Positions 1 through 61,664 of a DNA stretch of 64,000 nt are shown here, one piece after another. The notes beneath the pieces are model-generated. The model worked only from the letters and a program-made list of their open reading frames with translations, had not been told where the DNA came from and ran no database searches. Position numbers and translations under genes: made by a program. The stretch is from Lachnospiraceae bacterium (GTDB lineage Bacteria; Bacillota; Clostridia; Lachnospirales; Lachnospiraceae). The stretch lies in NCBI GenBank assembly GCA_910575255.1, contig CAJTEM010000015.1, forward strand, positions 1-64,000. Reading direction: 5' to 3'. Each line of letters opens with the position of its first letter. Within the stretch, counting starts at the first letter, position 1.

Positions 1-100
1 CTTCTAAATCTCTGCAAAGTCAAAATCCGCAGACCCTTTTCGATGGCTGCTCTCCCCGTTTCCCTGACTGTGTTTCGCGATTTCTTAACTTACTGACATT
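1..100. repeat. Palindromic element copy A (right half only)
   Basis: The window opens inside a copy of the dispersed palindromic element. Visible are the inner marker CTTCTAAATCTCTGCAAAGT, a right arm (about 22-66) that matches the arms of the other copies at AATCCGCAGACC, and the terminal ACTGACATT at 92-100. The left half lies upstream of the window, so the arm pairing cannot be tested here. Forward orientation. Confidence 0.75.
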
Positions 101-230
101 GGATCAGGGGTATGTGAAACTGTCGGAAGCGGTGAAGGCAGATGTGATTTCTTATGTAATCACACAGCCTCAGGGAATCGTAATTACGGATCTGATGGTA
201 AGAGCATCCGGAGAGCTTCCCATCAGCTGA
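99..230 (+). pseudogene. Possible gene remnant or small ORF of 43 codons
   Basis: An open frame beginning at a TTG on the edge of element A encodes a 43-residue peptide with ordinary amino-acid composition, ending in DLMVRASGELPIS. There is no Shine-Dalgarno at the start and the frame stays open into the repeat, so it may be the 3' end of a gene cut by the repeat, or chance. Product not recognised. Confidence 0.2.
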
Positions 231-462
231 TTACGCGGGATTACAGCTCAATCTGCCCAGAGACCGGATGTATTTTTTCCTCATTTTTCTTGAAAAATGT
301 GGATTTTTTGGGTGTTGTCACGTGTGTAGAATTCCATTTTTTTGAGCAGAGTTTAAGGAAAAGAACGCATAAACGGGAATTTACATAAAATTGAAAAAGG
401 AATGTCTGGTGAAATTAGGAGAATTGTGCAGAAAAAGGGGAGGGTAGGAGGAATGTCCGAAT
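231..462. other. AT-rich intergenic stretch
   Basis: No coding region is supported. A 7-bp hairpin (CATTTTT 282-288 with AAAAATG 293-299) is followed by a T-run and may be a weak terminator. Otherwise nothing recognisable before the promoter of the HPr-like gene. Confidence 0.4.
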
Positions 463-491
463 TTGACTTTTTTGGCAGGAAGTGGTATAAA
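463..491 (+). promoter_or_regulatory. Sigma-A type promoter of the HPr-like gene
   Basis: TTGACT (463-468) and TATAAA (486-491) with a 17-bp spacer. A hairpin, GAACAACACC (494-503) with GGTGGTGTTC (507-516), one mismatch, lies at the expected transcription start and could be an operator or a 5' UTR stem. Confidence 0.65.
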
Positions 492-537
492 ATGAACAAC
501 ACCAATGGTGGTGTTCACAATAAAGGAGTTGGATATC

Positions 538-780
538 ATGAAGGAGAAAAAGATCAAATTAGTAAGCATCGCAGACGCAAAGACGTTTGTGACAGCAGCC
601 ATGAAGTGCGATTTTGATGTTGATGTTTTCTACAACCGTGTGGTCATCGACGGGAAATCTATCCTGGGCGTACTGAGTATGGATCTGACCAAAACTCTGA
701 ATGTAAGACTGCATGGGGAAAACGAGGAATTTGAGGAATATCTGGAGACAATTGCACCGGCAGAGGAAAAAATCGCATAA
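538..780 (+). CDS. HPr-like protein lacking the phosphorylatable histidine
   Basis: 80 residues, the usual size of the PTS phosphocarrier HPr. The second half matches the family (VVIDGKSILGVLSM, including the Ser46 region, and the closing helix EFEEYLETI). The segment that should be GLHARPA is IADAKTFV, so the His15 that accepts phosphate from enzyme I is missing. It therefore probably does not carry phosphate in the PTS; a regulatory or structural role is inference. The start at 538 is chosen because AAAGGAG lies 8 bases upstream; the longer frame from 505 has no such site. Monocistronic, with a strong terminator downstream. Confidence 0.8.
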   Translation: MKEKKIKLVSIADAKTFVTAAMKCDFDVDVFYNRVVIDGKSILGVLSMDLTKTLNVRLHGENEEFEEYLETIAPAEEKIA

Positions 781-846
781 AACAGGATTCAAAAGCAGCT
801 GCCTGCCAGATTATCCGGAGGCAGCAGCATAAATAACAATGGCTGG

Positions 847-887
847 AAAACAGGCGGCACAAAAGGATTGTGTTGGCCTGTTTTTTT
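847..887 (+). terminator. Terminator after the HPr-like gene
   Basis: Stem AAAACAGGC (847-855) with GCCTGTTTT (876-884) running into a seven-T tract. A second hairpin, GCTGCCT/AGGCAGC (798-825), precedes it. Confidence 0.75.
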
Positions 888-961
888 CATAAAAAAGTGC
901 AGGATGGAACGCATATGCTTTGTATCATGCTATAAAGAAAAAATAATTTTCGGGGGACAGT

Positions 962-3331
962 ATGGATTCAGAAGAGAGGAACCGGATTCGAATATCGGTC
1001 CGCAGCCTGGTGGAGTTTGTGATGCGGAGCGGGGATATTGACAATCGGCGTTCCGGCGGGGCCAGGAAGGATGCCATGCAGGCAGGCAGCCGCATTCACC
1101 GCAAAATTCAGCGCCGGATGGGGGCGGATTATCAGGCCGAGGTGAGCCTGAAACATATTGTAGAGCAGGAGGATTACCAGATCCTCATCGAGGGCCGTGC
1201 AGATGGAATCATCCGAAATGAGAAGGAGACGGTTATTGACGAAATCAAGGGGATCTTCCGGGATGTGGCACGTCTGGAGGAGCCGTTCCAGGTACATCTG
1301 GCTCAGGCAATGTGTTACGGATATATATATGCCAGCCAGAACCAGCTGGAGAAGATCGGAATTCAGATTACCTACTGCAACATGGAAACCGAAAAAATCC
1401 GGCGGTTTAAGCAGGAGAAAGGATTTGAAGAGCTGAAAATATGGTTTGAGGAGCTGCTTCGGGAATATCAGAAATGGGCAGAATATCAGTATCAGCACAG
1501 CCAGCTGCGGAAGGAATATTTAGGGAAGCTTTCTTTTCCCTATCCTTATCGGGAGGGGCAGAAGGAGCTGGCTGTTGCAGTATATCGTGCTCTGAAACTG
1601 GGAAAAAATCTGTTTATCCAGGCACCTACCGGTATCGGGAAAACTCTTTCTGCCGTATATCCGGCATTGAAAGCAATGGGGGAGGGACAGGGGGAGAAGC
1701 TGTTCTATCTGACGGCGAAGACGATTACCCGAAGTGTGGCAGAGGAGTGCTTCTTCCTGCTTCGGGAGCATGGTCTGTTCTTCAGTACCGTTACCATTAC
1801 TGCCAAAGAAAAACTCTGCCCATGGGAAAAGGCGGAGTGTAATCCGGAGGCCTGTAGCCTGGCCAGAGGGCATTTTGACCGGGTCAATGGAGCGGTGTTC
1901 GATATTATCCACCAGGAGTTGGGAATTACCCGGGAAATCCTGCTTCGTTATGCAGAGAAATATCAGGTCTGTCCCTTTGAATTCTGTCTGGATATCAGCA
2001 ACTGGGTGGATGGGGTAATCTGTGATTACAATTATGTATTTGACCCCAATGCCCGGCTGAAACGGTATTTTTCGGAGGGTGTATCCGGGGAATATCTGTT
2101 TCTGATTGACGAGGCACACAATCTGGTGCATCGTGCCCGGGAAATGTTCAGCGCCATGCTGGTAAAGGAGGATTTTCTGGCTGTAAAGAGGATTTTGAAG
2201 GGGCATGCCGGAAAGGTAGAGCGGCTTCTGGAACGCTGTAACCGAAAACTTCTGGATCTGAAACGGGAATGTGACAGTTATCAGGTTCTGGAGAATGTGA
2301 ATTTCTTTGTCAGCGACCTGAGGGAGCTGTTCGGAGAGATGGAAATTCTTATGGAGGAGCCGGAGGCAGGGCGGGAGCTGCCAGACTGGGATGTGGTGCT
2401 TGACTTCTACTTTTCGGTACGTCATTTTCTGAACATGTATGAAGATCTGGATGATCATTATCGGATTTATACGGAACTGGGGCAGGAGGGAAGTTTTTAC
2501 CTGCACCTGTTTTGCATCGATCCCTCCCGGTGTCTGTCGGATTGTCTGGATAAGGGCAGGGGAAGTGTTTTCTTTTCTGCCACTCTGCTGCCGATCCTGT
2601 ATTACAAGAAGCTGCTTTCGGGGAACCTGGAGGATTACGCCGTCTATGCCCGGTCTCCATTTCCGGCCGAGAACCGGATGCTTTTGATCGGCTCGGATGT
2701 CAGCAGCCGTTATACCCGCAGAAACCGGAGTGAGTATGGTAAGGTGGTCGACTACATTTGCGCGGTTGCCGGAAGCCATATTGGCAATTATATGGTATTT
2801 TTCCCTTCTTACCGCTATATGGAGTCAGTGGAGGAGGAACTGCGGCAAATGGATGACAAAACATTTACCTGGAGAATGCAGGAGGGCAGGATGGCCGAGG
2901 CAGACCGGGAGGCATTTCTGGCAGGCTTTGAGATCGGAAGAACGAGGTCTTTTGTAGGACTCTGTGTGCTCGGAGGAATCTTCTCGGAAGGCATTGACCT
3001 GAAGGCCAAACGGCTGGAAGGGGTGATTATCGTGGGCACAGGACTGCCGAAGGTCTGTACCGAGCAAGAGATCTTAAAGACTTATTTCGATGAACAGCAG
3101 GAGAACGGATACGATTATGCTTATCAGTATCCTGGCATGAATAAGGTTATGCAGGCTGCAGGGCGGGTGATCCGCACCGGTGAGGACCGGGGAATTATTC
3201 TGCTTTTGGATGACCGGTTCCTGCGGCCGGAGCTTCAGGGGATGTTCCCCCGGGAATGGTCTGAATATGCTCCTGTCACCCGAAATACGGTGCGCGGATG
3301 GCTGGAAAGGTTCTGGGGCGGGGAAGAATAA
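962..3331 (+). CDS. PD-(D/E)XK nuclease fused to a DinG/Rad3-type (XPD-like) DNA helicase
   Basis: 789 residues, predicted cytoplasmic DNA repair enzyme. The N-terminal 125 residues look like a RecB/Cas4-type nuclease: His46, GRAD with Asp81, VIDEIK with Glu94 and Lys96, and a QAMCYGY motif near 115-121. The helicase part has Walker A APTGIGKT near residue 221, four cysteines about residues 286-330 placed as in the iron-sulphur domain of XPD/DinG helicases (KLCPW, AECNPEAC, YQVCPF), a DEAH box near 383, and motif VI QAAGRVIRTGED near 728. The ribosome site CGGGGGACAG precedes the ATG directly. Stands alone between the HPr-like gene and a convergent LysR gene. The substrate is unknown; 5' flap or branched DNA processing is inference. 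Confidence 0.85.
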   Translation: MDSEERNRIRISVRSLVEFVMRSGDIDNRRSGGARKDAMQAGSRIHRKIQRRMGADYQAEVSLKHIVEQEDYQILIEGRADGIIRNEKETVIDEIKGIFRDVARLEEPFQVHLAQAMCYGYIYASQNQLEKIGIQITYCNMETEKIRRFKQEKGFEELKIWFEELLREYQKWAEYQYQHSQLRKEYLGKLSFPYPYREGQKELAVAVYRALKLGKNLFIQAPTGIGKTLSAVYPALKAMGEGQGEKLFYLTAKTITRSVAEECFFLLREHGLFFSTVTITAKEKLCPWEKAECNPEACSLARGHFDRVNGAVFDIIHQELGITREILLRYAEKYQVCPFEFCLDISNWVDGVICDYNYVFDPNARLKRYFSEGVSGEYLFLIDEAHNLVHRAREMFSAMLVKEDFLAVKRILKGHAGKVERLLERCNRKLLDLKRECDSYQVLENVNFFVSDLRELFGEMEILMEEPEAGRELPDWDVVLDFYFSVRHFLNMYEDLDDHYRIYTELGQEGSFYLHLFCIDPSRCLSDCLDKGRGSVFFSATLLPILYYKKLLSGNLEDYAVYARSPFPAENRMLLIGSDVSSRYTRRNRSEYGKVVDYICAVAGSHIGNYMVFFPSYRYMESVEEELRQMDDKTFTWRMQEGRMAEADREAFLAGFEIGRTRSFVGLCVLGGIFSEGIDLKAKRLEGVIIVGTGLPKVCTEQEILKTYFDEQQENGYDYAYQYPGMNKVMQAAGRVIRTGEDRGIILLLDDRFLRPELQGMFPREWSEYAPVTRNTVRGWLERFWGGEE

Positions 3332-3348
3332 TAGAGAAGGTTTGGGCT

Positions 3349-4224
3349 TTACAGCATGTCCATGAACTGCTTTGCTGCCTGTGACAGGGGAAGGTTCTCA
3401 TTGCAGGCGACCACCAGCTGACGGGCAGGAACCGGCTCCTCTAAATCCAGGACAAACAGATTGGGAATATTGCCGGGAACACAGTAATCCGGGACAAAAG
3501 CAATGCCCAGGCCGATGCGGGCGAGATCAATCAACAGGTCATTGCTGCTGAGTTCGATCTCGGGGACAAGATCCAGCTGATGACGCTGGAACAGACTATG
3601 CAGGAATTCGCTGGTAGTGCTTTTACGGTCCAGCATCAGGATCGGACAATCCTGAAGCTCACTCAGGCAGATCTTCCGGTTCTTCAGATGCCGGTATTCC
3701 TCATTGGCGATAAATACATCGTGAAATTCCCGGATCACCTGTACGTTTTGTGTATTGGAAAATCCGGAATTGGGATAATTGGTGATGCAAAAGTCCACCT
3801 GTCCGGATGCCAGGAGCCTGGCACAGGCAATGGAGGTCTGGTTGGTGACCTTGATATGAATCCTCGGGTAGCGGCAGTGGAATTCTTTCAAATAGGGGAT
3901 CAGATAATAGCGGCAGATCGTGTCGCTGGCTCCGATGCGCAACTGGCCGCCGTCTAACGTATTCGCTTCCAGAAGCTGGTTCTCGCCGCGTCGGATCAGG
4001 TTCATGGCCGGTTCGATATGTTTTAAGAGGATCTCGCCTTCTGGTGTCAGCTGCACGCGTTTGGTGCTGCGGATAAACAGAGGTTGGTTCAGCTTTTTCT
4101 CCAGCAGTTTGACAGACTGGCTGACCGCTGACTGAGAGATAAAGAGTTGCCTTGAGGCTTCCGAAAAGCTCAAGGTGTTGGCCACATGATAAAAAACCTT
4201 GTATAACTCATAATTAATGTCCAT
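3349..4224 (-). CDS. LysR-family transcriptional regulator
   Basis: 291 residues, normal for the family. The N-terminal winged helix-turn-helix (FSEASRQLFISQSAVSQSVKLLEKKL, read as two halves around residues 20-45) is followed by a substrate-binding domain from about residue 90 (GGQLRIGASDTICRYYLIPYL). Convergent with the helicase gene and divergent from the ATP-grasp operon starting at 4541, so by the usual LysR arrangement it may control that operon; this is inference. Its ligand cannot be predicted from sequence. Confidence 0.88.
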   Translation of the reverse strand: MDINYELYKVFYHVANTLSFSEASRQLFISQSAVSQSVKLLEKKLNQPLFIRSTKRVQLTPEGEILLKHIEPAMNLIRRGENQLLEANTLDGGQLRIGASDTICRYYLIPYLKEFHCRYPRIHIKVTNQTSIACARLLASGQVDFCITNYPNSGFSNTQNVQVIREFHDVFIANEEYRHLKNRKICLSELQDCPILMLDRKSTTSEFLHSLFQRHQLDLVPEIELSSNDLLIDLARIGLGIAFVPDYCVPGNIPNLFVLDLEEPVPARQLVVACNENLPLSQAAKQFMDML

Positions 4225-4431
4225 GATCAGCGCTCCTTATAGGTGGTGATTCTATTTTATCATAGATTATGAAGCAGGTAAAGCGAGAGAGTTACTTTTT
4301 ACGGAGCTGGCATTTACCAGCCCCGAAAGAACGGGAAAACGGGGAGAGAAGCCATCGGAAATCTTATTGAAATTGCCCGTGAAAAGTAAGTGCGGGAAAA
4401 TCAATCGGGAGAGTCAGCAAATAGAAATATC
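4225..4431. other. Divergent intergenic region between lysR and the ATP-grasp operon
   Basis: Contains a 17-bp dyad ATAG-N9-CTAT (4239-4255) just upstream of lysR that could be a LysR-type box (weak). From about 4310 to 4360 there is a degraded fragment of the palindromic element: a piece resembling the outer boundary module of copy G (GAGCTGGCATTTACC) followed by AAACGGGGAGAGAAGCCATC, which is the complement of the arm of copy A with one change. Confidence 0.4.
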
Positions 4432-4460
4432 TTGAAAAAAATGTCAACCTGTTGTAATAT
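4432..4460 (+). promoter_or_regulatory. Promoter of the ATP-grasp operon
   Basis: TTGAAA (4432-4437), 17-bp spacer, TAATAT (4455-4460). Initiation would fall near 4467, just before the leader hairpin. Confidence 0.6.
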
Positions 4461-4473
4461 GGATATAGGAAGT

Positions 4474-4510
4474 AAAGGCGCTCCGTTTGATTTCGAGCGC
4501 CCTTTGTTTT
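4474..4510 (+). terminator. Leader hairpin with T-rich tail, possible attenuator
   Basis: GGCGCTC (4477-4483) pairs with GAGCGCC (4495-4501), extended by AAA/TTT around a one-base bulge and followed by TTTGTTTT. It lies between the promoter and the first gene of the operon, so it would stop most transcripts unless read through. No leader peptide or aptamer was recognised. Confidence 0.5.
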
Positions 4511-4540
4511 ACCTGTTAAAAAGAGAGGGGATGGCTGCCG

Positions 4541-5854
4541 ATGAGGGATATGGTAGAGCACATGGAGGGGATCAACCGGCTGATGGCCAGGTATGGCGTA
4601 AAGTTCGGGATCTATAAGAATCGGGAATTTCATGAACAGTTATTTCCATTTGACCCGCTTCCGCGGGTGATTCCGGCTGAGGAGTTTGAGTATCTGGAAA
4701 AGGGGCTGGCACAGCGGGTAGATGCACTGAATTGTTTTCTGGCGGATATTTATGGAGAGAAGAAGATCGTAAAGGACGGAGTGATTCCGGAGGATTTCAT
4801 CTTCTTGTCGAAGGGATATCTGCCGCAGTGTGAAGGGATGATTCCTCCAAAAAGGATTTACAGCCATATTTCGGGAATCGATCTGGTGCAGGCCAAGGAT
4901 GGAACCTGGTATATTCTGGAGGATAATCTGCGGATTCCTTCCGGGGCATCCTATCCGATGATTGCCAGAGAGCTGACAAGACAGGCATCGCCGCGTACGT
5001 TTATGCGGAATCATGTGCTGGATAACCGGAATTATGCAGGCATGCTGAAAGAGGTGATGGATTATGTCAATACCGGCGGGATTAATGTGGTATTGACGCC
5101 AGGTCGATATAACGCGGCGTTTTTCGAGCATTCCTATCTGGCCGAGCGGTCAGGAGCGATTCTGGCCATGCCGCAGGATCTGTATGTGGAGAATAACCGG
5201 CTGTTTTACCGTCAGTATCAGGGGCGGCAGCTGCAGGTGGGGACCGTGTATCGTCGGCTGTCTGATGAATATCTGGATCCGCTTTGCTTTGAACCGGAAT
5301 CGCTGATCGGTGTGCCGGGGATTATGGATGTGTACCGCAGTGGTAATGTGGCACTGGTCAATGCGCCGGGCAACGGAGTTGCCGATGACAAGGGAATCTA
5401 TTATTTTGTACCGCATATGGTAAAGTATTATCTGGGAGAGGAAGCGATTCTTAGGAATGCGCCCACTTATCTGGCCTTTTATGAGCAGGATCGACGGTTC
5501 ATTCTGGAACATCTGGAACGTCTGGTGGTCAAGGATGTGTCGGAGGCGGGCGGTTATGGTGTTGTGTTCGGCCGTGATCTGACAAAGGAGAAGCTTGCGG
5601 ATCTGAAAGAGATTATTATCAGAGAACCACGGCGCTTTATTGCACAGGAGGTCATTGATTTTATCGATCTGGATATCGTAGAGGGGGATGGCGGTGTTCC
5701 CCGGAAGGCAGATCTGAGGGCATTTGTCTTAAGCGGCGGCAGGACAAGGGTCTGGCCGAGCGGACTGACGAGATTTTCCAGGAATCCGGATTCATTCGTA
5801 GTCAATTCGTCACAGGGAGGAGGATTTAAGGACACATGGGTATTATCTCGATAG
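4541..5854 (+). CDS. Circularly permuted ATP-grasp protein (DUF404/DUF407 type)
   Basis: 437 residues. Matches the circularly permuted ATP-grasp type 2 family: LPRVIPAEEFEYLEKGL at the start, then the segment KDGTWYILEDNLRIPSGASY near residues 125-150, and a C-terminal EVIDFIDLDIVEG region. ATP-grasp enzymes ligate a carboxylate to an amine at the expense of ATP; members of this permuted group are predicted peptide or amide ligases, and the substrate is unknown. First gene of a five-gene operon, overlapping the next gene by 19 bp. The family almost always travels with alpha-E and transglutaminase genes, as here. GGGGATGGCTGCCG precedes the start; a good Shine-Dalgarno is GAGAGGGG about 15 bases upstream. 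Confidence 0.88.
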   Translation: MRDMVEHMEGINRLMARYGVKFGIYKNREFHEQLFPFDPLPRVIPAEEFEYLEKGLAQRVDALNCFLADIYGEKKIVKDGVIPEDFIFLSKGYLPQCEGMIPPKRIYSHISGIDLVQAKDGTWYILEDNLRIPSGASYPMIARELTRQASPRTFMRNHVLDNRNYAGMLKEVMDYVNTGGINVVLTPGRYNAAFFEHSYLAERSGAILAMPQDLYVENNRLFYRQYQGRQLQVGTVYRRLSDEYLDPLCFEPESLIGVPGIMDVYRSGNVALVNAPGNGVADDKGIYYFVPHMVKYYLGEEAILRNAPTYLAFYEQDRRFILEHLERLVVKDVSEAGGYGVVFGRDLTKEKLADLKEIIIREPRRFIAQEVIDFIDLDIVEGDGGVPRKADLRAFVLSGGRTRVWPSGLTRFSRNPDSFVVNSSQGGGFKDTWVLSR

Positions 5855-6510
5855 AAAAAGCGGATCATCTGTTCTGGCTGGGCAGGTATACGGAAAGGGT
5901 GTTTACTACCTTGCAGATGTTCTTCCGGTATTTTGACCAGATGCTGGATATGGATGATACGGCCTACATCGGATTTTGTGAAAAGCTGGCGATCCCGGTG
6001 ATTTATGAGAACAAGGATGATTTTATCAGCAGGTATCTGTTCTCTCCGGAGGACCCCAATTCTATCTACAGCAATATGATGCGGGCATTTGATAATGCGG
6101 TGATTTTGCGGGATGAGCTGAGCAGCGACACTTTGTCTTATATTCAGATGGCGCTGGACTGTATCGAACATGCGAAGGTTCATGCCAATGCGCTGGTATA
6201 TGATCTGCAGCCGGTGAAGGATGATCTGTTTGCTTTCTGGGGCTGCCTGGATGACAATGTGGAAGATGAGGAGGGCCGGAACATCATTAAGTGCGGTAAA
6301 TATCTGGAACGCCTGGATCTGTATATGAGACTGGATTTTCCGTATCCTTATATAGAGAAGGAATGGAATAAATTTTTAAACCGCATGCACAAAATCCGGA
6401 TTGGGTATCAGGTAACGGAAGTGGATCGGCTTACCGGAGTGCTGCAGCTTGGGGAAGGCTGGAGGGCCAGGAAGCAGGAGGCTCTGAATGCCTTATGGAA
6501 TATTTTTTAG
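5836..6510 (+). CDS. Alpha-E domain protein (DUF403)
   Basis: 224 residues, shorter than the roughly 300 residues common in the family. The N-terminal signature KADHLFWLGRYTERV is clear, followed by a predominantly helical protein. Alpha-E proteins have no established enzymatic activity; they co-occur with circularly permuted ATP-grasp and transglutaminase proteins and are presumed partners of the ligase. The gene starts inside the end of the ATP-grasp gene (19-bp overlap, GGGAGGAGG 9 bases upstream of its ATG), implying coupled translation. Confidence 0.85.
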   Translation: MGIISIEKADHLFWLGRYTERVFTTLQMFFRYFDQMLDMDDTAYIGFCEKLAIPVIYENKDDFISRYLFSPEDPNSIYSNMMRAFDNAVILRDELSSDTLSYIQMALDCIEHAKVHANALVYDLQPVKDDLFAFWGCLDDNVEDEEGRNIIKCGKYLERLDLYMRLDFPYPYIEKEWNKFLNRMHKIRIGYQVTEVDRLTGVLQLGEGWRARKQEALNALWNIF

Positions 6511-9603: not shown

Positions 9604-9925
9604 CAATGTCAGTTCATATAGGAAAGGGATATTCAGCCTTGGAACGAGGGGAGGGCCGCAGCGGGAAAGGGTCTGCGGATGTTGACTTTACAGAGATTTA
9701 GAAGTCCTTAAATTTCTGAGTTTTGCGTTGAAATGAAAATTCACACTGTTTGAGCGCAGCGAGTTTGTGAATTTTTGTTTCGTTTTTAGCAAAAATCAGA
9801 AATTTTAGGAATTCTTGATCTCGAAACCGGAAACATCCGCAGACCCTTTCCCGCTGCGGCCCTCCCCTTGTTTCAAGGCGTACCTTCTGGAACCCTACCC
9901 CACCCCCGTGAAAAGTACCCAAAAG
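9604..9925 (-). repeat. Palindromic element copy B
   Basis: Reverse-orientation full copy. Outer arms 9637-9683 and 9832-9878 pair at 45 of 47 positions and the two exceptions are G-T wobbles. An inner stem carries AAATGAAAATTCAC against GTGAATTTTTGTTT around the cap, here CTGTTTGAGCGCAGCGAGTT on the plus strand. The left end has AATGTCAGT (9605-9613); the right end carries the boundary module GGCGTACCTTCTGGAACC. Lies between tRNA-Ala and luxS. Confidence 0.85.
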
Positions 9926-18831: not shown

Positions 18832-18924
18832 CTGCTTATGCAACGAAAGTATTGTAGCACAAGCGGGAGAATTTGGCAAGCGTTTTTTGCTGAAAATTAA
18901 GAAAGCGAGGTAACAGTTCAAGGG

Positions 18925-19273
18925 TTATTTTTCCAGAGCGTATCTTTCGGACCCCCACCCCATGAACCAATGTCAGTCAGTTAAGCGTTTCTGAAAGGTA
19001 CGCCAAGGAAACGGGAGAGAGGCCACCAGAAATGATCTGCGGATTTTTCCGGTTTCGAGATCAAGAATTCCTAAAATCCCTGATTTTTGCTAAGAACAAA
19101 ACGGAAATCCACAAACTCGCTTCGCTCAGACAGTGTGGATTTCCGTTTCAACGCAAAATTCAGAGATTTAAGGACTTCTAAATCTCTGCAAAGTCAAAAT
19201 CCGCAGATCATTTCTGGTGGCCTCTCTCCCGTTTCCTTGGCTGCATTTTCGTTTTCTTAATTTATTGACATTG
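18925..19273 (+). repeat. Palindromic element copy C
   Basis: Full forward copy. Arms 19003-19047 and 19196-19240 are perfectly complementary over 45 nt. The inner stem (CTGATTTTTGC...GCAAAATTCAG and CGGAAATCCACA...TGTGGATTTCCG) supports the cap AACTCGCTTCGCTCAGACAG at about 19114-19133. Ends: AATGTCAGT (18969-18977) and ATTGACATT (19264-19272). Upstream, 18925-18965 repeats the outer boundary module seen at copies B, F and the 33.9-kb remnant. Lies between tRNA-Leu and the 3' end of dapL. Confidence 0.88.
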
Positions 19274-19296
19274 CCTATGGACAGTAACAAACGCGG

Positions 19297-26026: not shown

Positions 26027-26192
26027 GATAAGCTTTCCAGAAGGTACGCCTTGGAAAAAGGAGAGGGAAGACGCCGGAAATGGTCTGGTGATTTTCCCTG
26101 CAAAGTCAAAATCACCAGACCATTTCCGGCGTCTTCCCTCTCCTTTTTCCAAGGCTGTGTATTCTTTGAGCTAAATTAAATGACATGATGTT
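26027..26192 (+). repeat. Palindromic element copy D (internally deleted)
   Basis: Arms 26049-26095 and 26108-26154 are perfectly complementary over 47 nt with only a 12-base loop, CCCTGCAAAGTC, which is the element's right-hand inner marker. The inner stem and cap are missing. Left boundary GGTACGCC and right end AAATGACAT (26181-26189) are kept. Lies between coaE and the MBL gene. Confidence 0.9.
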
Positions 26193-31334: not shown

Positions 31335-31612
31335 AAAGAGTATTCCGGGGGTACGCCTTGGAGGAAGGAGCGGGGCCGGGGCGTGGGGCGTCGGATCCGT
31401 TTTCCGGTTTCGGGATTAAGAAGGCCTAAGTTTTCTGTATTTTGCTAAAAGCAAAACGAAAATACCCAAACTCGCTGCGCTCAGACAGTGAGTATTTTCG
31501 TTTTAACGCAAAATACAGAAAGCTAAGGTCTTCTAAATCCCTGCAAAGTCAAACGGATCCGACGCCCCACGCCCCGGCCCCGCTCCTTCCCCCAAGGCTG
31601 ATTCTATCTGTT
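31335..31612 (+). repeat. Palindromic element copy E
   Basis: Forward copy with very GC-rich arms: 31356-31402 and 31551-31597 pair at 46 of 47 positions. The arm sequence (GGGGCCGGGGCGTGGGG core) is unlike any other copy. Inner stem CTGTATTTTGC/GCAAAATACAG and cap with CTCGCTGCGCTCAGACAG (about 31470-31487). The inner markers TTCTAAATCCCTGCAAAGTC are conserved. Between tmcAL and copy F. Confidence 0.9.
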
Positions 31613-31679: not shown

Positions 31680-31915
31680 ATATTCAGCTCTGGAACAAGA
31701 GGGGAGACGCAGCCGGAAATGGTCTGCTGCCTTTGACTTTGCAGAGATTTAGAAGTCCTAAAGTTTCTGAGTTTTGCGTTTCGTTCTTAGCAAAAATCGG
31801 AAACTATAGGAATTCTTGATCTCGAAACCGGAAAAGTCAGCAGACCATTTCCGGCTGCGTCTCCCCTCTTGTTCCGGAGCGTACCTCCCGGAATCTCACC
31901 CATGAAGCGCCCCCA
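31680..31915 (-). repeat. Palindromic element copy F (cap deleted)
   Basis: Reverse copy. Arms 31688-31729 and 31838-31879 pair at 41 of 42 positions, the exception being a T-G wobble. The inner stem is shortened and the conserved cap is absent: GTTTTGCG is joined through TTTCGTTCTTAG to CAAAAATC. The boundary module GGAGCGTACCTCCCGGAATC follows. Lies immediately after copy E in the divergent region upstream of pduL. Confidence 0.87.
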
Positions 31916-33872: not shown

Positions 33873-33920
33873 TTATTTTCCAAGGCGTACCTTCCGGAAT
33901 CTCACCTCCCATGAAAAGTA
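33873..33920. repeat. Remnant of palindromic element (boundary module)
   Basis: TCCAAGGCGTACCTTCCGGAATCTCACC followed by CATGAAAAGTAAC matches (in two pieces here) the outer boundary of copies B and F. No arms or cap remain. Confidence 0.6.
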
Positions 33921-33983
33921 ACAGGAAAAAGCCCTGGGCGTAAAGAAAAAACACTTGACACCCAGGGGTTTTTCCTGTATGAT
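33921..33983 (+). promoter_or_regulatory. ylxM-ffh promoter embedded in a long hairpin
   Basis: TTGACA (33955-33960), 17-bp spacer, TATGAT (33978-33983). The spacer is the right arm of an 18-bp inverted repeat (33921-33938 with 33961-33978, one mismatch), with the -35 element in the loop. On the plus strand the right arm is followed by no long T tract but contains GGGGTTTTTCC, so the structure may also terminate ackA transcripts. Confidence 0.65.
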
Positions 33984-53411: not shown

Positions 53412-53660
53412 TTCCGAAAGATGCGCTCCGGAAAAAGGATTCCCCGGCTTGCGAGTTTCGGATGCAGAAACTCTAAGCTTGCAGAAATCTGCTAAAAGCA
53501 GGCTCAAAAATACAGAACTCGCTTCGCTCAGACAGCTGTATTTTTGAGTCTGACGCAGATTCCTGCGAGCTAAGAGTTTCTATGCATCCTGCAAACGCAA
53601 TCCGGGGAATCCTTTTTCCAGAGCTGGTATTTGCCGGTCCAGAAGGAAGTACTCCATGAA
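53412..53660 (+). repeat. Palindromic element copy G (diverged subfamily)
   Basis: Arms 53426-53453 and 53596-53623 pair at 26 of 28 positions. A second stem (53461-53492 with 53556-53588) pairs at most positions, and a third (GCTCAAAAATACAG with CTGTATTTTTGAGTC) closes on the cap AACTCGCTTCGCTCAGACAG (about 53517-53536). The stem sequences are unlike all other copies; only the cap and boundary are shared. Confidence 0.85.
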
Positions 53661-53699: not shown

Positions 53700-53815
53700 T
53701 AACTAAGAATATTCAGCCTTGGAACAAGGGGAGGACCCTTTCCGACGGCTGCTCTCCCCGTTTCCCTGGCGTACCTTTTGGAACAGCTTAACTACTGACA
53801 TTGGGGGTGAACAGT
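53700..53815 (-). repeat. Palindromic element copy H (collapsed)
   Basis: ATTCAGCCTTGGAACAAGG at 53708 onward is the left boundary and first bases of an arm, joined directly to a right arm (GACGGCTGCTCTCCCCGTTT, as in copy A), the boundary GGCGTACCTTTTGGAAC and the end ACTGACATT (53792-53800). The inner part and most of one arm are deleted. Confidence 0.7.
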
Positions 53816-53847
53816 AATCAATGGGCCTATAGTTCTCGCATATTCAA

Positions 53848-55200: not shown

Positions 55201-55203
55201 TCT

Positions 55204-55635: not shown

Positions 55636-55638
55636 GTG

Positions 55639-55665: not shown

Positions 55666-55749
55666 TATAGCAGTAAAGTACTGTCAGAGGTGCCATAGAG
55701 CAGAGAAAAAGCCTCTAAAGTACTAAAAGCATAGCAAGGGGGTATCTTC

Positions 55750-57225
55750 ATGGAAAGCTATAATGTATACAAAGATATCAAGGCACGGACCGGCGGTGAG
55801 ATCTATTTAGGTGTTGTCGGACCGGTCCGGACCGGGAAATCAACCTTTATCAAGCGTTTTATGGAACAGCTGGTGCTTCCGGAGATGGAGGATGAGCACC
55901 GGAAAAATCAGACAAGGGATGAGCTGCCCCAGAGCGCGGCAGGGAAGACCATCATGACTACAGAGCCAAAGTTCATTCCCAAGGAAGCCGCTCTGATACA
56001 GCCTGCGGAGGGAATTCAGGCCAAGGTGCGGCTGATTGACTGTGTGGGTTTCATGGTAGATGGCGCTGCCGGTCATGTAGAAAATGAGAGAGAACGTCTG
56101 GTGAAGACTCCTTGGTTTGAAGAAGAGATCCCTTTTACCCAGGCGGCGGAGATCGGTACCCGTAAGGTTATCAAGGATCATTCCACCATCGGGATTGTAA
56201 TAACCACGGATGGCTCTTTTGGAGATCTGAAGAGGGAAGCATACATAGCGGCAGAGAACACGGCAATTCAGGAGTTGAAGGATATCGGCAAGCCATTTCT
56301 GGTGCTTCTCAATTCCGACCGTCCTTATTCGGAAGAAACGACACGCCTGGCAAGAGAGCTCGAGAAGCAGCATGCCGTGACGGTAATGCCGGTCAATTGT
56401 GAGCAGTTGAAGCGGGAAGATGTTCATCGGATTCTGGAAAAGGTTCTGAAAGAATTTCCGGTGACAGAGGTGGATTTCTATATTCCCAAATGGCTGGAGA
56501 TTCTGCCCGGAAGCCATTGGCTGAAGGAGCAGGCAGTAAAGACGGCCCGGGAGCTGATGGCTCGGGTACGTCATATGAAAGATGTCCCTGCCGACTTTGG
56601 AAACGGTGATTCTGAGGTGATCCGTTCGATGAAAGTAGATCAGATGGATCTTTCCAACGGCAGCGTATCTGTCCAGGTTGCGCTGGAGGATGGCTATTAT
56701 TATCAGACGCTCAGTGATTTTGCCGGAATTCCCATCACGGATGAATATCAGCTGATGCAGAAGCTGCGGGATCTGGCATCCATGCAGATTGAGTATGATA
56801 AGGTTTTAAATGCCATGAATCAGGTGCGAATGCGCGGCTATGGTGTGGTTACACCGGAGCGTTCAGAGATTATCTTAGATGAGCCCACGGTAATCCGCCA
56901 TGGGAATAAATACGGCGTAAAGATGCGGGCGGAAGCCCCGTCCATCAATCTCATTAAGGCCCATATCCAGACAGAGATTGCTCCGATTGTCGGCAGCGAA
57001 CAGCAGGCTGAGGATCTGATTGCCTATATGAAAGAGAATGCCAGGAAGAAGGAAGACGGCATCTGGGATACCAATATTTTCGGGAAATCGATTGAACAGA
57101 TTGTTGAGGATGGTATCCAGGCCAAGGTAAGTCAGATGACAGAGGAATGTCAGATGAAGCTGCAGGATGCTTTGCAGAAAATTATCAATGACAGCTCGGG
57201 CGGAATGATTTGCATTATTATTTGA
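55750..57225 (+). CDS. spoIVA: Stage IV sporulation protein A
   Basis: 491 residues. Cytoskeletal ATPase that forms the basement layer of the spore coat around the forespore. Walker A GPVRTGKSTFI near residues 24-34, the N-terminal YKDIKARTGGEIYLGVVGPV, DCVGFMVDGAAGH, and the C-terminal NDSSGGMICIII are diagnostic. AGCAAGGGGGTATCTTC precedes the ATG. Strong evidence that the organism forms endospores. Confidence 0.97.
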   Translation: MESYNVYKDIKARTGGEIYLGVVGPVRTGKSTFIKRFMEQLVLPEMEDEHRKNQTRDELPQSAAGKTIMTTEPKFIPKEAALIQPAEGIQAKVRLIDCVGFMVDGAAGHVENERERLVKTPWFEEEIPFTQAAEIGTRKVIKDHSTIGIVITTDGSFGDLKREAYIAAENTAIQELKDIGKPFLVLLNSDRPYSEETTRLARELEKQHAVTVMPVNCEQLKREDVHRILEKVLKEFPVTEVDFYIPKWLEILPGSHWLKEQAVKTARELMARVRHMKDVPADFGNGDSEVIRSMKVDQMDLSNGSVSVQVALEDGYYYQTLSDFAGIPITDEYQLMQKLRDLASMQIEYDKVLNAMNQVRMRGYGVVTPERSEIILDEPTVIRHGNKYGVKMRAEAPSINLIKAHIQTEIAPIVGSEQQAEDLIAYMKENARKKEDGIWDTNIFGKSIEQIVEDGIQAKVSQMTEECQMKLQDALQKIINDSSGGMICIII

Positions 57226-57241
57226 GAAAGCCCGGTTTGTT

Positions 57242-57306
57242 GCGTCAGGGCAAAACGGTTCGTAGCGGCGTTCTGCCGGCTGTGGCCATGGGGTTTTGTC
57301 CTGCGC
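57242..57306 (+). ncRNA. Structured stretch between spoIVA and the RNase-like gene
   Basis: GCGTCAGGGCAAAAC (57242-57256) pairs with GTTTTGTCCTGCGC (57293-57306) over 14 bp with one bulge and one G-T, enclosing about 36 nt that can form a second stem (AGCGGC/GCCGGCT). No T tract follows. It may be a leader of the downstream gene or a small RNA; no known family was recognised. Confidence 0.35.
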
Positions 57307-57393
57307 AGTCGAAATACCGATCCTGATACATCCCCATATCCCCAACGATAACCTGATGATTCTAAAATTCCCCACCAAAGAGGAGGAAGAATT

Positions 57394-58995
57394 ATGCGTA
57401 TAGTATTCAGCGGAGCTGCCCACGAGGTAACCGGAAGCTGCCATTATGTACAGGCCGGGGAGACTCATCTGCTTGTTGACTGCGGTATGGAGCAGGGGTT
57501 CAATATTTATGAGAATGTTGAACCTCCGGTTCCGTGGTCACAGATTGATTATGTACTGCTTACACATGCCCATATCGATCATGCCGGAATGCTTCCGTAT
57601 ATCTATGCCCGCGGCTTTTCTGGTTCTGTTATGGCGACAAATGCTACCTGTGATCTCTGTAATATTATGCTGAAGGATAGTGCCCATATTCAGGAAATGG
57701 AAGCTGAGTGGAAGAACCGCAAAGCACGGCGGGCCGGAGATCCCGAAGTGAAGCCTCTCTATGAGATGAACGATGCTCTGGGGGTTTTGGAGCATTTTGT
57801 TCCCAATAATTACGGAGATATTGTCAAGCTGACGGATGATGTGACGATCCGTTTTACAGATATTGGCCATCTTTTGGGATCCGCGTCTATTGAAGTCTGG
57901 CTGCGTGAGGGCGATATCGAGAAAAAGATTGTATTTTCAGGCGACATTGGCAATAAAAATAAACCGTTGATCTGTGATCCCTCTTATACGATGGCTGCCG
58001 ATTACGCCGTGATGGAGTCTACCTATGGCAACCGGCTTCATCAGAAGGGAACCGACCATATCAGTGAGCTGGTACGGATTGTGCAGGAGACTCTTGATCG
58101 TGGCGGCAATGTGGTGATTCCTGCTTTTGCCGTGGGCAGAACTCAGGAGCTTTTGTATTATTTCCGCCACATTAAGACCCAGCGTCTTATCCGCGGCCAC
58201 GAGAATTTTGAGGTATATGTGGACAGCCCTCTGGCCGTAGAGGCTACCCATGTTTTTAAGCAGAATCAGCTGGAATGCTATGATGAAGAGACGCAAGATC
58301 TGGTGCGGATGGGCATTAATCCGATCTCTTTCCCGGGATTAAAGCTTTCCATCAGCAGTGAGGAATCAAAAAATATCAATTTCGATCCCTCACCAAAGGT
58401 GATCATTTCCGCTTCCGGTATGTGTGACGCCGGAAGAATCCGCCATCATTTAAAACACAACCTCTGGAGGCGGGAGTGCACGGTGATCTTCGCCGGCTAT
58501 CAGGCAGAGGGAACCCTGGGACGGAGTCTGGTAGACGGGAACCGGACAGTCAAGCTGTTCGGTGAGACCATTGATGTGGAGGCTCATATTGAGACACTGC
58601 ACGATATCAGCGGACATGCCGACCGGGACGGACTTCTGGAATGGGTGGAGAATTTCCAAAAGAAGCCAGAGCAGATTTTCGTGGTGCATGGCAGTGATGA
58701 TGTCTGTGATCAATTTGCCGAGCTGGTTACCGAGAGGACCGGTGTTCCGGCCAAAGCGCCTTTCAGCGGCGCGGAATACGATCTGATTGCCGGAGAGTGG
58801 ATCAAAGAGACGGTTGGTGTTCCGATTACCACTAAGAGTGCTGCCACCAGAAAGGCGAAGGGAATTTTTGCCCGTCTGCTGGCTGCCGGAGAGCGTCTCA
58901 TGACAGTGATTGCTCACAATGAGGGCGGTACGAATAAAGATCTGGCTAAATTTGCAGATCAGATCAATGCCCTATGCGATAAATGGGACAGATAG
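57394..58995 (+). CDS. Beta-CASP metallo-beta-lactamase RNase-like protein
   Basis: 533 residues. MBL fold with LTHAHIDHAGMLPY (zinc ligands, residues about 55-68), GHLLGSASIEVW, SGDIGNKNKPL and ESTYGNRLH, then the beta-CASP insert, YVDSPLAVEATHVF, and a C-terminal RMMBL segment HDISGHADRDGLLEW with IFVVHGSDD. Same build as CPSF73/YSH1-type RNases rather than RNase J. RNA processing is inferred. GAGGAGGAAGAATT precedes the ATG. Fifteen bases before rnhA. Confidence 0.9.
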   Translation: MRIVFSGAAHEVTGSCHYVQAGETHLLVDCGMEQGFNIYENVEPPVPWSQIDYVLLTHAHIDHAGMLPYIYARGFSGSVMATNATCDLCNIMLKDSAHIQEMEAEWKNRKARRAGDPEVKPLYEMNDALGVLEHFVPNNYGDIVKLTDDVTIRFTDIGHLLGSASIEVWLREGDIEKKIVFSGDIGNKNKPLICDPSYTMAADYAVMESTYGNRLHQKGTDHISELVRIVQETLDRGGNVVIPAFAVGRTQELLYYFRHIKTQRLIRGHENFEVYVDSPLAVEATHVFKQNQLECYDEETQDLVRMGINPISFPGLKLSISSEESKNINFDPSPKVIISASGMCDAGRIRHHLKHNLWRRECTVIFAGYQAEGTLGRSLVDGNRTVKLFGETIDVEAHIETLHDISGHADRDGLLEWVENFQKKPEQIFVVHGSDDVCDQFAELVTERTGVPAKAPFSGAEYDLIAGEWIKETVGVPITTKSAATRKAKGIFARLLAAGERLMTVIAHNEGGTNKDLAKFADQINALCDKWDR

Positions 58996-59010
58996 GAGAA
59001 TTTTCATTTT

Positions 59011-59493
59011 ATGACCAAGGTTCAGATATATACGGATGGTTCTGCGAGGGGGAATCCGGACGGTCCGGGAGGCTATGGAACGGTTCTGCAGTTTCTGGAC
59101 AGTAAGGGACAGCTACATGAAAAGGTGCTTTCTGCCGGTTATCAAAAGACCACAAATAACCGGATGGAGCTGATGGCAGCTATTGTCGGCCTGGAGGCCT
59201 TGAACCGTCCCTGTCAGGTGGAATTGTATTCAGATTCCAAATATCTGACAGATGCCTTTAATCAGCATTGGATCGACAATTGGGTGGCAAATAACTGGAA
59301 GCGTGGCAAGAGCGGAGAAGTAAAGAATATTGATTTGTGGGAACGTCTTCTGGATGCCAAAGCACCACACCAGGTGAGCTTTATCTGGGTTAAGGGGCAC
59401 GCAGGCCATCCGCAGAATGAACGATGTGATAAGCTGGCTACTTCTGCAGCAGACGGGGAATATCTGCTGATGGATGAGGGAATGAACAGATAA
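59011..59493 (+). CDS. rnhA: Ribonuclease HI
   Basis: 160 residues. Degrades RNA in RNA-DNA hybrids. Catalytic acids: Asp9 in IYTDGSARGNPDGPGG, Glu in NNRMELMAAI, Asp in LYSDSKYL, and Asp near the C-terminus with His in KGHAGHPQNERCDKLA. With the beta-CASP protein upstream this looks like an RNA-turnover pair. Confidence 0.95.
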   Translation: MTKVQIYTDGSARGNPDGPGGYGTVLQFLDSKGQLHEKVLSAGYQKTTNNRMELMAAIVGLEALNRPCQVELYSDSKYLTDAFNQHWIDNWVANNWKRGKSGEVKNIDLWERLLDAKAPHQVSFIWVKGHAGHPQNERCDKLATSAADGEYLLMDEGMNR

Positions 59494-59508
59494 AGGGAAT
59501 TTCTGTTT

Positions 59509-59537
59509 GGGGTGCGTGAAAGCGTACCCCCTTTTTG
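59509..59537 (+). terminator. Terminator after rnhA
   Basis: GGGGTGCG (59509-59516) pairs with CGTACCCC (59523-59530, one G-T) followed by CTTTTTG. Confidence 0.82.
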
Positions 59538-59691
59538 TATCAAATCGTTACGGTTCTCTTACAAATATTTACTTCTTTTGTCGGATGGTTCCCTTTCCTG
59601 GGAGATTGTGTTATGGTATGAATCAGAGGGGACAAAAGATCTTTGGCTCCCAATATCATATGATAAAAAATGAAGGACAGGGTGGGGTGCT

Positions 59692-60495
59692 ATGAAGCCA
59701 AGAGGGATCTGGATTGCGATCGGGATAATTTTGGTTATTGGAAGCCTTTCAACTGATTATGTGAAGAAGCGAACAGCAGGGAGTGAGGAGACAGCAGCAG
59801 CTGTCCCGGAGGCTGCCTCTGGTTTTGCAGGGATTCTTTCGGCCCGGGAGGGGACAGACGGAGAACCCCTGCAGGAATTTTCCATGGATGGGAAGAAAAG
59901 CGATGATTTTATCTCCCGGGCTTTGGAACCGGCCAGAGAAAACCCTCCATGTGAGGAAGGCCAACAGAATAAGGAAAGTTTTTCCACTGCCACAGCGTCT
60001 GAATCTGGAAGTGCCGTGATCACCAGGCAAAGGATGGACATTGCCGTGGATCCTGCAGAAGTGAATCCTTCCCTCACACAGGAGGATGCCGACTGGTCAG
60101 AAATCCCTCAGAAGGAAGAAGGCAGTCCGGACAATCCGGTCTTAATCCGGCTGCAGGAATTGGACGGGCAGATTGCCATCAATCAGTCCCGCGAGTCGGA
60201 GAATACCACTAATTCCCGGAAAGCCTCCTCTGAGAACGAGTGGATGTTGTGGGAAACCGAGCTGCAGCGGATCTTGGGAATTCTAAAAGAGAAGCTGGAT
60301 TCCCAGGCACAGGAAGCACTCATGCATGAACAGATCGAATGGATGAAGAGCCGCGAAGAAGAAGCGGTCGATGCTTCCAGGAAAGAACTGGGAGGCACCA
60401 TGGAGGAGGTTAATTATAACCGTTCGCGTGCGCAGCGAACCAGAAGCCGCGCCTACGAACTGGCGGAAACCTATGCAGATCTGTTCCGGGAGTGA
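59692..60495 (+). CDS. Membrane-anchored protein with an LprI-like (DUF1311) domain
   Basis: 267 residues. N-terminal transmembrane helix or signal anchor (GIWIAIGIILVIGSLST). A low-complexity acidic region (about residues 40-150) links to a C-terminal helical domain (LDGQIAINQSR, MLWETELQRILGILKEKL, HEQIEWMKSREEE) with the Trp and charged pattern of DUF1311, the lysozyme-inhibitor LprI fold. Extracytoplasmic; inhibition of muramidases is family knowledge, not shown here. The start has AGGGTGGGGTGCT upstream. Function otherwise unknown. Confidence 0.7.
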   Translation: MKPRGIWIAIGIILVIGSLSTDYVKKRTAGSEETAAAVPEAASGFAGILSAREGTDGEPLQEFSMDGKKSDDFISRALEPARENPPCEEGQQNKESFSTATASESGSAVITRQRMDIAVDPAEVNPSLTQEDADWSEIPQKEEGSPDNPVLIRLQELDGQIAINQSRESENTTNSRKASSENEWMLWETELQRILGILKEKLDSQAQEALMHEQIEWMKSREEEAVDASRKELGGTMEEVNYNRSRAQRTRSRAYELAETYADLFRE

Positions 60496-60510
60496 ATGAT
60501 CTCTTTGCTT

Positions 60511-61215
60511 TCATTTCACCCCAGACTTCGCAGGCGTGCAGAAGACGCTGACAGCGGGTGATTCATTCACCGGGTTTTCGCGATTCAAAAGCAGTTCAAA
60601 GGTGGCATTCTTTGACTGCAAAAGATGCTCATACATAGCATCTGCTGCCGCCTGCCATTCCTTTTTGATACAGGCCTTGATAATGGCAAGATGTTCATTC
60701 CTGGTATCCTCCAGACGCTGTTCGGCGCGCTGGCCGGTAATGATACGAAAACGCTGATTCTGGTTATTGATAATCCGGAAATACTCCTGAATGTAATGAT
60801 TGGGTACCGCACTGTTAAGAAAGCTGTGGAAATTATCATCCAGGATAAAAAAGGTCTTTGCGTCTTGGGTAATATCCAACCGTAAAAGATTCTGATAATA
60901 GTCTAAAAGAGTTCCTTCATCTAAGGTATAGCCATAATTTCGAATGCTGTAGGGTTCTAGCAGCAACCTCAGTTCAAAAATGTTATTGACTTCGGAAATG
61001 GAGAGGCTGGAAACCACAATTCCCTTTTTGGAACGAATGGTAACCAGGCCTTCCTGTTCCAGTCGGCTCAGAGCATCACGGATGGGAGTGCGGCTTACAT
61101 GAAAAGTCTCGCAGAGAACGGCTTCATTTAAATGCATACCAGGAGAAAATTCACAGTTGAGAATCTTTTCCTTGATATTGTTGTAGGCTTGGACCTTTAA
61201 GCTTTTTTTTGTCAT
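60511..61215 (-). CDS. GntR-family regulator, FCD subfamily
   Basis: 234 residues. Winged helix N-terminus (AYNNIKEKILNCEFSPGMHLNEAVLCETFHVSRTPIRDALSRLEQEGLV, in pieces over residues 10-60), then the FCD ligand-binding domain with FILDDNFHSFLN and NEHLAIIKACIKKEW carrying its metal-binding His/Asp. Divergent from the zinc dehydrogenase, whose promoter has paired operator-like sites, so it probably represses that gene in response to a sugar or its acid. The ligand is unknown. Confidence 0.9.
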   Translation of the reverse strand: MTKKSLKVQAYNNIKEKILNCEFSPGMHLNEAVLCETFHVSRTPIRDALSRLEQEGLVTIRSKKGIVVSSLSISEVNNIFELRLLLEPYSIRNYGYTLDEGTLLDYYQNLLRLDITQDAKTFFILDDNFHSFLNSAVPNHYIQEYFRIINNQNQRFRIITGQRAEQRLEDTRNEHLAIIKACIKKEWQAAADAMYEHLLQSKNATFELLLNRENPVNESPAVSVFCTPAKSGVK

Positions 61216-61309
61216 GCCAGAAAACCTCCTCAGGTACGATTTCGCTATGGTTCTACATCCATTATAGATGAAAAGAAAGAAAAAACCAAGTTACTTTTGA
61301 TGTTGCATT

Positions 61310-61664
61310 TCCAGAGCTGAGATCTATCGTTCCCGAAGAAGCAACTCCCGTGAATCAATGCCAGAGTTGAAATTTCCGAAAGGTACGCCTTGTAAAAAGA
61401 GAGGAGAGGTGTTTTGAAATGGTCTGCTGTTTTTTTCGGTTTCGGGATCAAGAATTCCTAAAACCCCTGATTTTTGCTAAGAACGAAACGAAAATCCCCG
61501 AACTCGCTTCGCTCAGACAGCGGGGATTTTCATTTCAACGCAAAACTCAGGGATTTAAGGACTTCTAAATCCCTGCAAAGTCAAAAACAGCAGACCATTT
61601 CAAAACACCTCTCCTCTCTTTTTACAAGGCTAAGTATTCTCAAGGTTAAAGAACTGACATTGCC
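61310..61664 (+). repeat. Palindromic element copy I
   Basis: Forward full copy. Arms 61388-61434 and 61583-61629 are perfectly complementary over 47 nt. Inner stem (CCTGATTTTTGC/GCAAAACTCAGG and AAAATCCCCG/CGGGGATTTT) and cap AACTCGCTTCGCTCAGACAG (61501-61520). The right end is ACTGACATT (61653-61661); the left end carries AATGCCAG and a boundary module from about 61310. In the divergent region between gntR and the dehydrogenase. Confidence 0.88.

What the first reader, a model, noticed from the sequence alone, without database searches (positions are those of the whole stretch)
1..61664. Family of palindromic intergenic elements with copy-specific, co-varying arms
About ten copies or remnants (A 1-100, fragment near 4310-4360, B 9604-9925, C 18925-19273, D 26027-26192, E 31335-31612, F 31680-31915, 33873-33920, G 53412-53660, H 53700-53815, I 61310-61664) share a plan: outer arms of 28-47 nt, inner stem, constant cap AACTCGCTTCGCTCAGACAG or a near variant, and markers such as CTGCAAAGTC. 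Within a copy the arms pair perfectly (C 45/45, D 47/47, I 47/47) or almost so (E 46/47, B 45/47 with G-T wobbles, F 41/42, G 26/28), yet arm sequences differ greatly between copies. Pairing rather than sequence is preserved. This suggests selection for an RNA or cruciform structure, or arm-to-arm correction by template switching. I know of no named family with this combination.
Basis: partly seen in the sequence, partly recalled or inferred. Interest (0 to 1): 0.88.

Follow-up and report, generated by a model that had tools for sequence, protein, structure and literature searches.

The report
Mobile hairpins with one universal loop
This bacterium carries well over a hundred copies of a mobile DNA hairpin whose two arms differ from copy to copy yet still match each other, and whose tip recurs letter for letter in hairpins of very distant bacteria, which points to an undescribed way of recognising a folded strand.

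Summary
In a 40-copy alignment 95.4% of 3436 pair cells are paired and 56 of 86 pairs changed on both sides, far above shuffles and slides. The genome holds 145 caps. In this genus the copies spread as MITEs: units of about 309 bp with ends CAATGTCA..TGACATTG and 9-11 bp direct repeats, often inside a second pair of ends with 8-bp repeats. A sister species has an element with such ends and a broken IS4-type transposase. That part is ordinary.

The cap is not. It recurs in at least six phyla as a hairpin loop on unrelated stems (92 of 120 places, swapped control 4.6), and in two Bacteroidetes genomes as inward-facing pairs (32 of 32). Rfam has no such family. The cap strand shows no wobble preference; outside Lachnospiraceae wobbles favour the other strand (47 to 20), where the cap reads GC-GNA-GC. 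Compensated changes are transversion-rich, and 2 of 89 copies show one arm overwritten by the other.

Best reading: a structure-recognised folded strand, dispersed by transposases, arms matched by selection plus arm copying. No cognate enzyme was found; RAYT was tested and is not associated.

The parts
1..101 (+). Copy A, right half only: CTGCAAAGTC marker, outer arm, A-type end at 84-101
4291..4390 (.). Fragment near 4.3 kb bounded by two B-type ends (GTTACTTTTTAC and the inverse GTGAAAAGTAAG), no cap
9604..9919 (-). Copy B, type 1, cap 9746-9765, A-type end 9604-9621, B-like end 9908-9919
18910..19288 (+). Copy C, type 1, A unit 18968-19273, cap 19114-19133, B-like ends outside
26042..26155 (+). 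Copy D, cap-less, arms 48 of 48 paired with 12 nt between
31350..31600 (+). Copy E, type 1, cap 31469-31488; outer arm strongly different from other copies yet paired
31680..31889 (-). Copy F, inverted and cap-less partner of E
33873..33922 (-). Fragment: arm base GGCGTACCT and B-type end 33911-33922
53424..53626 (+). Copy G, type 2, cap 53516-53535
53709..53818 (-). Copy H, inverted cap-less remnant beside G, B-type end 53807-53818
61356..61662 (+). Copy I, type 1, cap 61501-61520, right A-type end 61645-61662

Best explanation
Two layers. (1) Dispersal, shown: in this genus the hairpins sit in miniature transposons, an about 309-bp unit A with IS4-like ends (9-11 bp direct repeats) and an outer unit B with GTTACTGTTCAC ends (8-bp repeats). 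This explains copy number, patchy bursts and lack of gene orientation. (2) Structure, partly inferred: the core is a pan-bacterial hairpin whose unpaired letters (the apical cap; in Lachnospiraceae also internal loops) are conserved while stems may take any sequence that pairs. Most likely the strand complementary to the cap as written (CTGTCTGA-GC-GNA-GC-GAGTT) folds as a single strand, DNA more likely than RNA, and a protein reads its unpaired bases, much as attC sites or IS200/REP hairpins are read. Arms stay matched because badly folding copies do not propagate and because one arm gets copied onto the other when the palindrome folds. The protein is unknown.
For: Covariation: 56 of 86 pairs, score 0.343 versus 0.109 shuffled and at most 0.100 slid. 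Ends and repeats: exact 8-bp repeats in 9 of 26 rows, one mismatch in 7 more; direct repeats of 9 or more in 11 of 35 rows versus 22 of 675 swapped. IS4-type transposase pieces next to A-type ends in G302 and G309. Pan-bacterial loop with unrelated stems: 92 of 120 versus 4.6. Strand: outside Lachnospiraceae 20 G-T to 47 A-C (60 nt, 166 elements) and 31 to 61 (120 nt, 160 elements); places new to the second set 3 to 13. Cap variation: the only freely variable base of 20 (T65 G19 C16 A12 of 112) is the middle of GNA on the other strand. Compensated changes 47 transversion and 49 transition types, uncompensated 22 and 55, p 0.008. Two overwritten arms of 89. No gene-orientation bias, 32 co- to 28 anti-directional.
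Against: No cognate enzyme found. In the own genome wobbles are symmetric (62 G-T to 58 A-C; 39 to 57 cells, 27 to 31 types) and in Lachnospiraceae relatives 19 to 15. The swapped-partner control for the 60-nt strand test itself leans 50 to 70, which weakens that window; the 120-nt control is even (131 to 135). The DNA folding program shows no GNA hairpin: no structure for three of four forms of the complement, a different one for GCA. Stability for any N is recalled. Own genome has no close match to the G302 transposase. Nothing here tests single-strandedness or binding.
Confidence: 0.5

Rival explanations
1. Passive quasi-palindromes: ordinary MITEs whose arms are homogenised by polymerase template switching, with no selection on folding and no reader of the cap.
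For: Transversion-rich compensated changes; pairs of copies differing at two arm columns already show 14 compensated to 6 single changes; overwritten arms in L206 and L301. PMC8604942 (abstract and passages) says template switching homogenises arms and in earlier bacterial data favoured transversions.
Against: Does not explain a loop kept over many phyla, nor conserved internal mismatches such as columns 83/191 and 99/175 (unpaired in 37 and 33 of 40), nor the strand preference outside Lachnospiraceae.
Confidence: 0.22
2. A functional host RNA (from the strand complementary to the cap as written) that also became mobile.
For: Wobble pairs favour that strand outside Lachnospiraceae; a likely pseudoknot upstream in other phyla; conserved internal loops in Lachnospiraceae.
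Against: Absent from 14 of 24 congeners and in bursts of 133, 66 and 18 copies in three; no orientation relative to genes; target duplications; no Rfam family; own-genome wobbles symmetric.
Confidence: 0.15
3. Members of the REP/REPIN world moved by a RAYT (Y1 transposase).
For: Inward-facing pairs: 23 of 26 close neighbours here, 17 of 17 and 15 of 15 in two Bacteroidetes genomes; REP papers report head-to-head dimers as predominant (PMC3733652, passages).
Against: Y1_Tnp found in 13 of 20 genomes with caps and 11 of 20 without. Two own-genome Y1 proteins are of IS200 type and score far below the RAYT cut-off (29.4 of 80 bits, and none); the third, with a stop, was not scanned.
Confidence: 0.06
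4. Transcription terminators or mRNA 3' protecting hairpins.
For: Intergenic hairpins, some followed by T-runs.
Against: 20 convergent to 26 divergent gene pairs; very long stems; target duplications.
Confidence: 0.04

Closest known systems
MITEs of IS4-family insertion sequences
   Same: Terminal inverted repeats, direct repeats near 10 bp (IS4 family: about 10 bp, PMC2266710, passages), no coding region of their own, a transposase piece with matching ends in sister species
   Different: The core is a covarying hairpin with a loop shared across phyla and carried also by unrelated ends
REP/REPIN/BIME palindromes with RAYT
   Same: Dispersed intergenic palindromes, inward-facing dimers
   Different: REPs are recognised at the hairpin base (GTAG or CGTC tags; stems 5-13 bp, PMC3733652 passages); here stems are far longer, the tip is constant, and RAYT is not associated
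Integron attC sites (recalled, no call)
   Same: Folded single strand, unpaired bases recognised, stems free to vary
   Different: No integrase link or attC core site was tested; here the apical loop is constant
Quasi-palindromes corrected by template switching
   Same: Arm homogenisation, transversion-rich in bacterial data (PMC8604942, abstract and passages)
   Different: Those are local mutation events, not a mobile family with a conserved tip

Membership tests
MITE of an IS4-family element | Defined terminal inverted repeats and near-constant length | tested here: met
   A ends in 35 rows, 31 of them 306-316 bp
MITE of an IS4-family element | Target duplication near 10 bp | tested here: met
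   9 or more bases in 11 of 35 rows, 22 of 675 swapped; the other rows mostly lie inside B ends
MITE of an IS4-family element | Same ends on an element with an IS4 transposase | tested here: met
   G302 1152-bp element, IS4 model E 2.3e-11 but below its curated cut-off, DDE_Tnp_1 E 4.4e-5; G309 relative
MITE of an IS4-family element | Transposase present in the same genome | tested here: not met
   No match to the G302 transposase in the own genome; own DDE_Tnp_1 genes checked lack A-type ends at their borders
REP/REPIN with RAYT | Cognate RAYT gene | tested here: not met
REP/REPIN with RAYT | GTAG or CGTC tag at the hairpin base | not tested
   none
REP/REPIN with RAYT | Inverted dimers | tested here: met
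Structured RNA of Rfam | Match to a curated model | tested here: not met
Structured RNA of Rfam | Transcribed | not testable with these tools
   no expression data
Quasi-palindrome correction by template switching | Arms become identical by one arm copying the other | tested here: inconclusive
   searches agree; no orthologous loci in sister strains were compared
Integron attC | Core sites and integrase | not tested
   none

The most novel reading that the evidence does not exclude
A bacterial-wide class of mobile elements defined by a folded strand rather than by a sequence: an ultra-stable GNA mini-hairpin tip flanked by GA on both sides, on stems of any sequence, typically as two inward-facing ends (in other phyla with an upstream pseudoknot), served by one undescribed structure-reading enzyme and able to borrow the ends of local transposons.
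Probability: 0.3. Interest if true: 0.88.

Novelty: new variant of a known kind. Interest (0 to 1): 0.68.

Why it matters
A loop kept letter for letter over at least six phyla while its stems are replaced freely is what one expects if something reads folded nucleic acid. If one protein does it, that is a new and widely portable structure-specific recognition system. If arm copying does most of the work, a family of about 145 copies in one genome is a natural record of template switching in bacteria. Either way, repeated intergenic sequence in Lachnospiraceae, Bacteroidetes, Ralstonia, Variovorax and Nitrospira gets a shared description.

Tried and rejected
RAYT as mover: not associated; two own-genome proteins are IS200-type. 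IS66 as parent of the outer ends: its ends differ. DDE_Tnp_1 genes of the own genome as parents: no A-type ends at their borders. A gene family common to cap neighbourhoods: ORF clustering over 140 loci gave nothing convincing (the largest cluster was ABC-type ATPases). Terminator role: no orientation bias (with a crude ORF caller; 6 of 112 caps at edges, 5 inside an ORF). Terminator-like hairpins as positive control for the wobble test: only 29 found, 4 to 3, uninformative, so the test has no positive control. Caps elsewhere: none in E. coli, 3 phage records and 8 plasmid records (20-letter BLAST queries), 7 viral contigs. The DNA folding program does not show the GNA hairpin. A skipping-rope RNA, recalled as a candidate, had no Rfam match; the one paper found for it was unrelated. 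My first wobble counts for other phyla included two Lachnospiraceae loci by mistake; one search leaves them out and replaces them. Script labels put window copy E under type 2; it is type 1. Literature searches; papers read only as passages: PMC10527192, PMC3733652, PMC8604942, PMC2266710.
Full report
OBSERVATION. The genome has 145 caps at up to two mismatches, 73 on one strand and 72 on the other, against 5 for the reversed pattern. I fetched 75 stretches around the places that were listed; with the window they hold 112 caps at up to three mismatches, so part of the genome's caps were not fetched. By script label they are type 1 (75), type 1 with a replaced left half (5) and type 2 (32, of which window copy E is really type 1).

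COVARIATION. Of 63 type-1 copies with both anchors, 62 had 34 or more of 41 arm columns paired; one with 30 was dropped. From 61 of these I chose 40 for diversity and aligned them. On a structure written from the palindrome, 95.4% of 3436 cells pair, 56 of 86 pairs changed on both sides, covariation score 0.343 against 0.109 shuffled and at most 0.100 slid. The long outer arm is 98.0% paired with 33 of 36 pairs changed on both sides. RNAalifold on its own predicts 89 pairs, 54 with compensatory changes. Choosing well-paired copies favours pairing, and related copies inflate the shuffle comparison; the slides keep relatedness.

HOW COPIES MOVE HERE. Comparison of copies shows two sets of ends. 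Unit A runs from CAATGTCA(G/T)TTAG(T/A)TAAG to its inverse and is 306-316 bp in 31 of 35 rows (three 352-354, one 399); 11 of 35 rows have flanking direct repeats of 9 or more bases against 22 of 675 with swapped flanks. Several of these targets are themselves B-type ends, which inflates both numbers. Unit B has ends GTTACTGTTCAC and encloses A units (about 340 bp), doublets (558-604 bp), or an unrelated core (L255, L256); 9 of 26 rows have exact 8-bp repeats, 7 more have one mismatch, and doublets are counted from both sides. Another genus (G046) has copies with GTTAC(C/T)GTT ends, 8-bp repeats and unrelated arms (L267, L268). In the sister species G302 a 1152-bp element with A-type ends carries a broken transposase matching the NCBIfam IS4 model (E 2.3e-11, below its cut-off) and Pfam DDE_Tnp_1 (E 4.4e-5); a 63% relative in G309 also lies near such an end. 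IS4 elements make about 10-bp duplications (PMC2266710, passages). Copies are patchy in the genus: present in 10 of 24, with 133, 66, 18 and otherwise 1-3. Elements show no gene-orientation preference: 32 co-, 28 anti-directional, 26 divergent, 20 convergent, 6 at edges. So dispersal here is that of MITEs.

THE LOOP IS PAN-BACTERIAL. The 80 titles shown include Bacillota, Bacteroidota, Nitrospirota, Pseudomonadota, Desulfobacterales and Thermoanaerobaculia (phylum placement recalled); Fusobacteriota came. Of 120 distinct places among these loci (some are Lachnospiraceae) 92 have a perfect stem of 6 or more within 7 nt of the cap, swapped control 4.6, and 105 of 120 left 12-mers differ. In Lachnospiraceae itself 20 of 299 sampled genomes hold the stricter pattern. 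Twenty-two genomes chosen because they hold caps carry 1-72 copies. In two of them, G326 and G337, all close neighbours among the places I took from that listing face inward (17 of 17, 15 of 15); in the own genome 23 of 26. Internal-loop motifs recur in Lachnospiraceae, for example CTGCA(A/C/T)A in 10 of 40 elements of other genera and 17 of 17 of congeners, shuffled 0.3 and 0.2; outside the family this one does not (2 of 105, shuffled 1.0). In 31 of 124 elements of the loci a short upstream hairpin has its 3' arm repeated behind it (no control run); in several, by my reading of the printed rows, its loop is complementary to the bases beyond (CTTGAC/GTCAAG, CTTGAT/ATCAAG, TCGCC/GGCGA, GTTGC/GCAAC), a likely pseudoknot.

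WHICH STRAND, DNA OR RNA. A mismatch flanked by three pairs on each side was scored as G-T or A-C on the cap strand. Own genome 62 to 58 after removal of duplicates, relatives 19 to 15, first mixed set 21 to 35 and 35 to 53 (p 0.08 and 0.07). With Lachnospiraceae left out: 17 to 34 in the first set, 3 to 13 in places new to the second, 20 to 47 pooled over 166 elements (p 0.001), one element per locus 13 to 38, bootstrap interval of the difference 12 to 42; with 120-nt arms 31 to 61 over 160 elements (p 0.002). Swapped partners give 50 to 70 for 60 nt and 131 to 135 for 120 nt, so the 60-nt window is somewhat biased. The cap strand is therefore not the selected RNA; the complementary strand may be the folding one. 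There the cap is CTGTCTGAGCGNAGCGAGTT, and its one freely variable base (T65 G19 C16 A12 of 112 on the cap strand) is the middle of GNA in GC-GNA-GC. GCGAAGC-type DNA hairpins are extraordinarily stable (PMC10527192, passages); that any middle base will do is recalled. This favours DNA, but the folding program does not reproduce it.

HOW ARMS STAY MATCHED. Compensated variants comprise 47 transversion and 49 transition types, uncompensated ones 22 and 55 (Fisher p 0.008); compensation through wobble intermediates would be transition-rich. Pairs of copies that differ at only two arm columns show 14 compensated to 6 single changes (pairs are not independent). In 2 of 89 elements the right arm carries the reverse complement of the left arm across an internal loop (L206, L301). 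L301 returns to the usual sequence after about 20 nt and is the clearer case; L206 could be a rearrangement. Template switching is known to homogenise arms (PMC8604942, abstract and passages). Yet some internal mismatches are kept in most copies, which argues for a constraint on the loops.

WHAT IT IS. Best reading: a structure-recognised folded strand with a universal tip, spread here as MITEs, arms matched by selection plus copying. Shown: pairing, ends, repeats, pan-bacterial loop. Inferred: single-strand folding, a reading protein, DNA rather than RNA. Not found: the protein. The literature searches listed under Tried and rejected found no description of this loop; they cover only the held open-access library.

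Noticed in passing
L345, L254, L346 (Parabacteroides distasonis plasmid records): Three related HU / smalltalk / amidase loci share a cap element between HU and smalltalk; L345 has a second, inverted element after smalltalk that the other two lack, and a partial repeat of the upstream short hairpin.
   Followed up: partly
L016, L051, L108 and own-genome B ends: The upstream short hairpin of other phyla often begins GTTACTTT, like the own genome's outer ends GTTACTTTTCAC; chance or kinship was not decided.
   Followed up: no
L255, L256, L262, L266 (own genome): The same GTTACTGTTCAC ends bound an unrelated 144-bp core, a tiny palindrome and an A-unit remnant, so one mover seems to serve several cores.
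   Followed up: partly
G311 (congener), many contig ends: Many caps of this genome lie within about 100 nt of a contig end, as if recent near-identical copies broke the assembly.
   Followed up: no
L011, L018, L028, L138, L147: A longer cap, CTGCGG-cap-TCCTCG, is shared by Nitrospira, Barnesiella and some Lachnospiraceae, so some stem bases next to the loop may also be conserved.
   Followed up: no
L259:1-300 (own genome contig C42): A tandem-looking repeat with GGAGCGAAGCG(A/G)AGG lies beside an A-type end.
   Followed up: no
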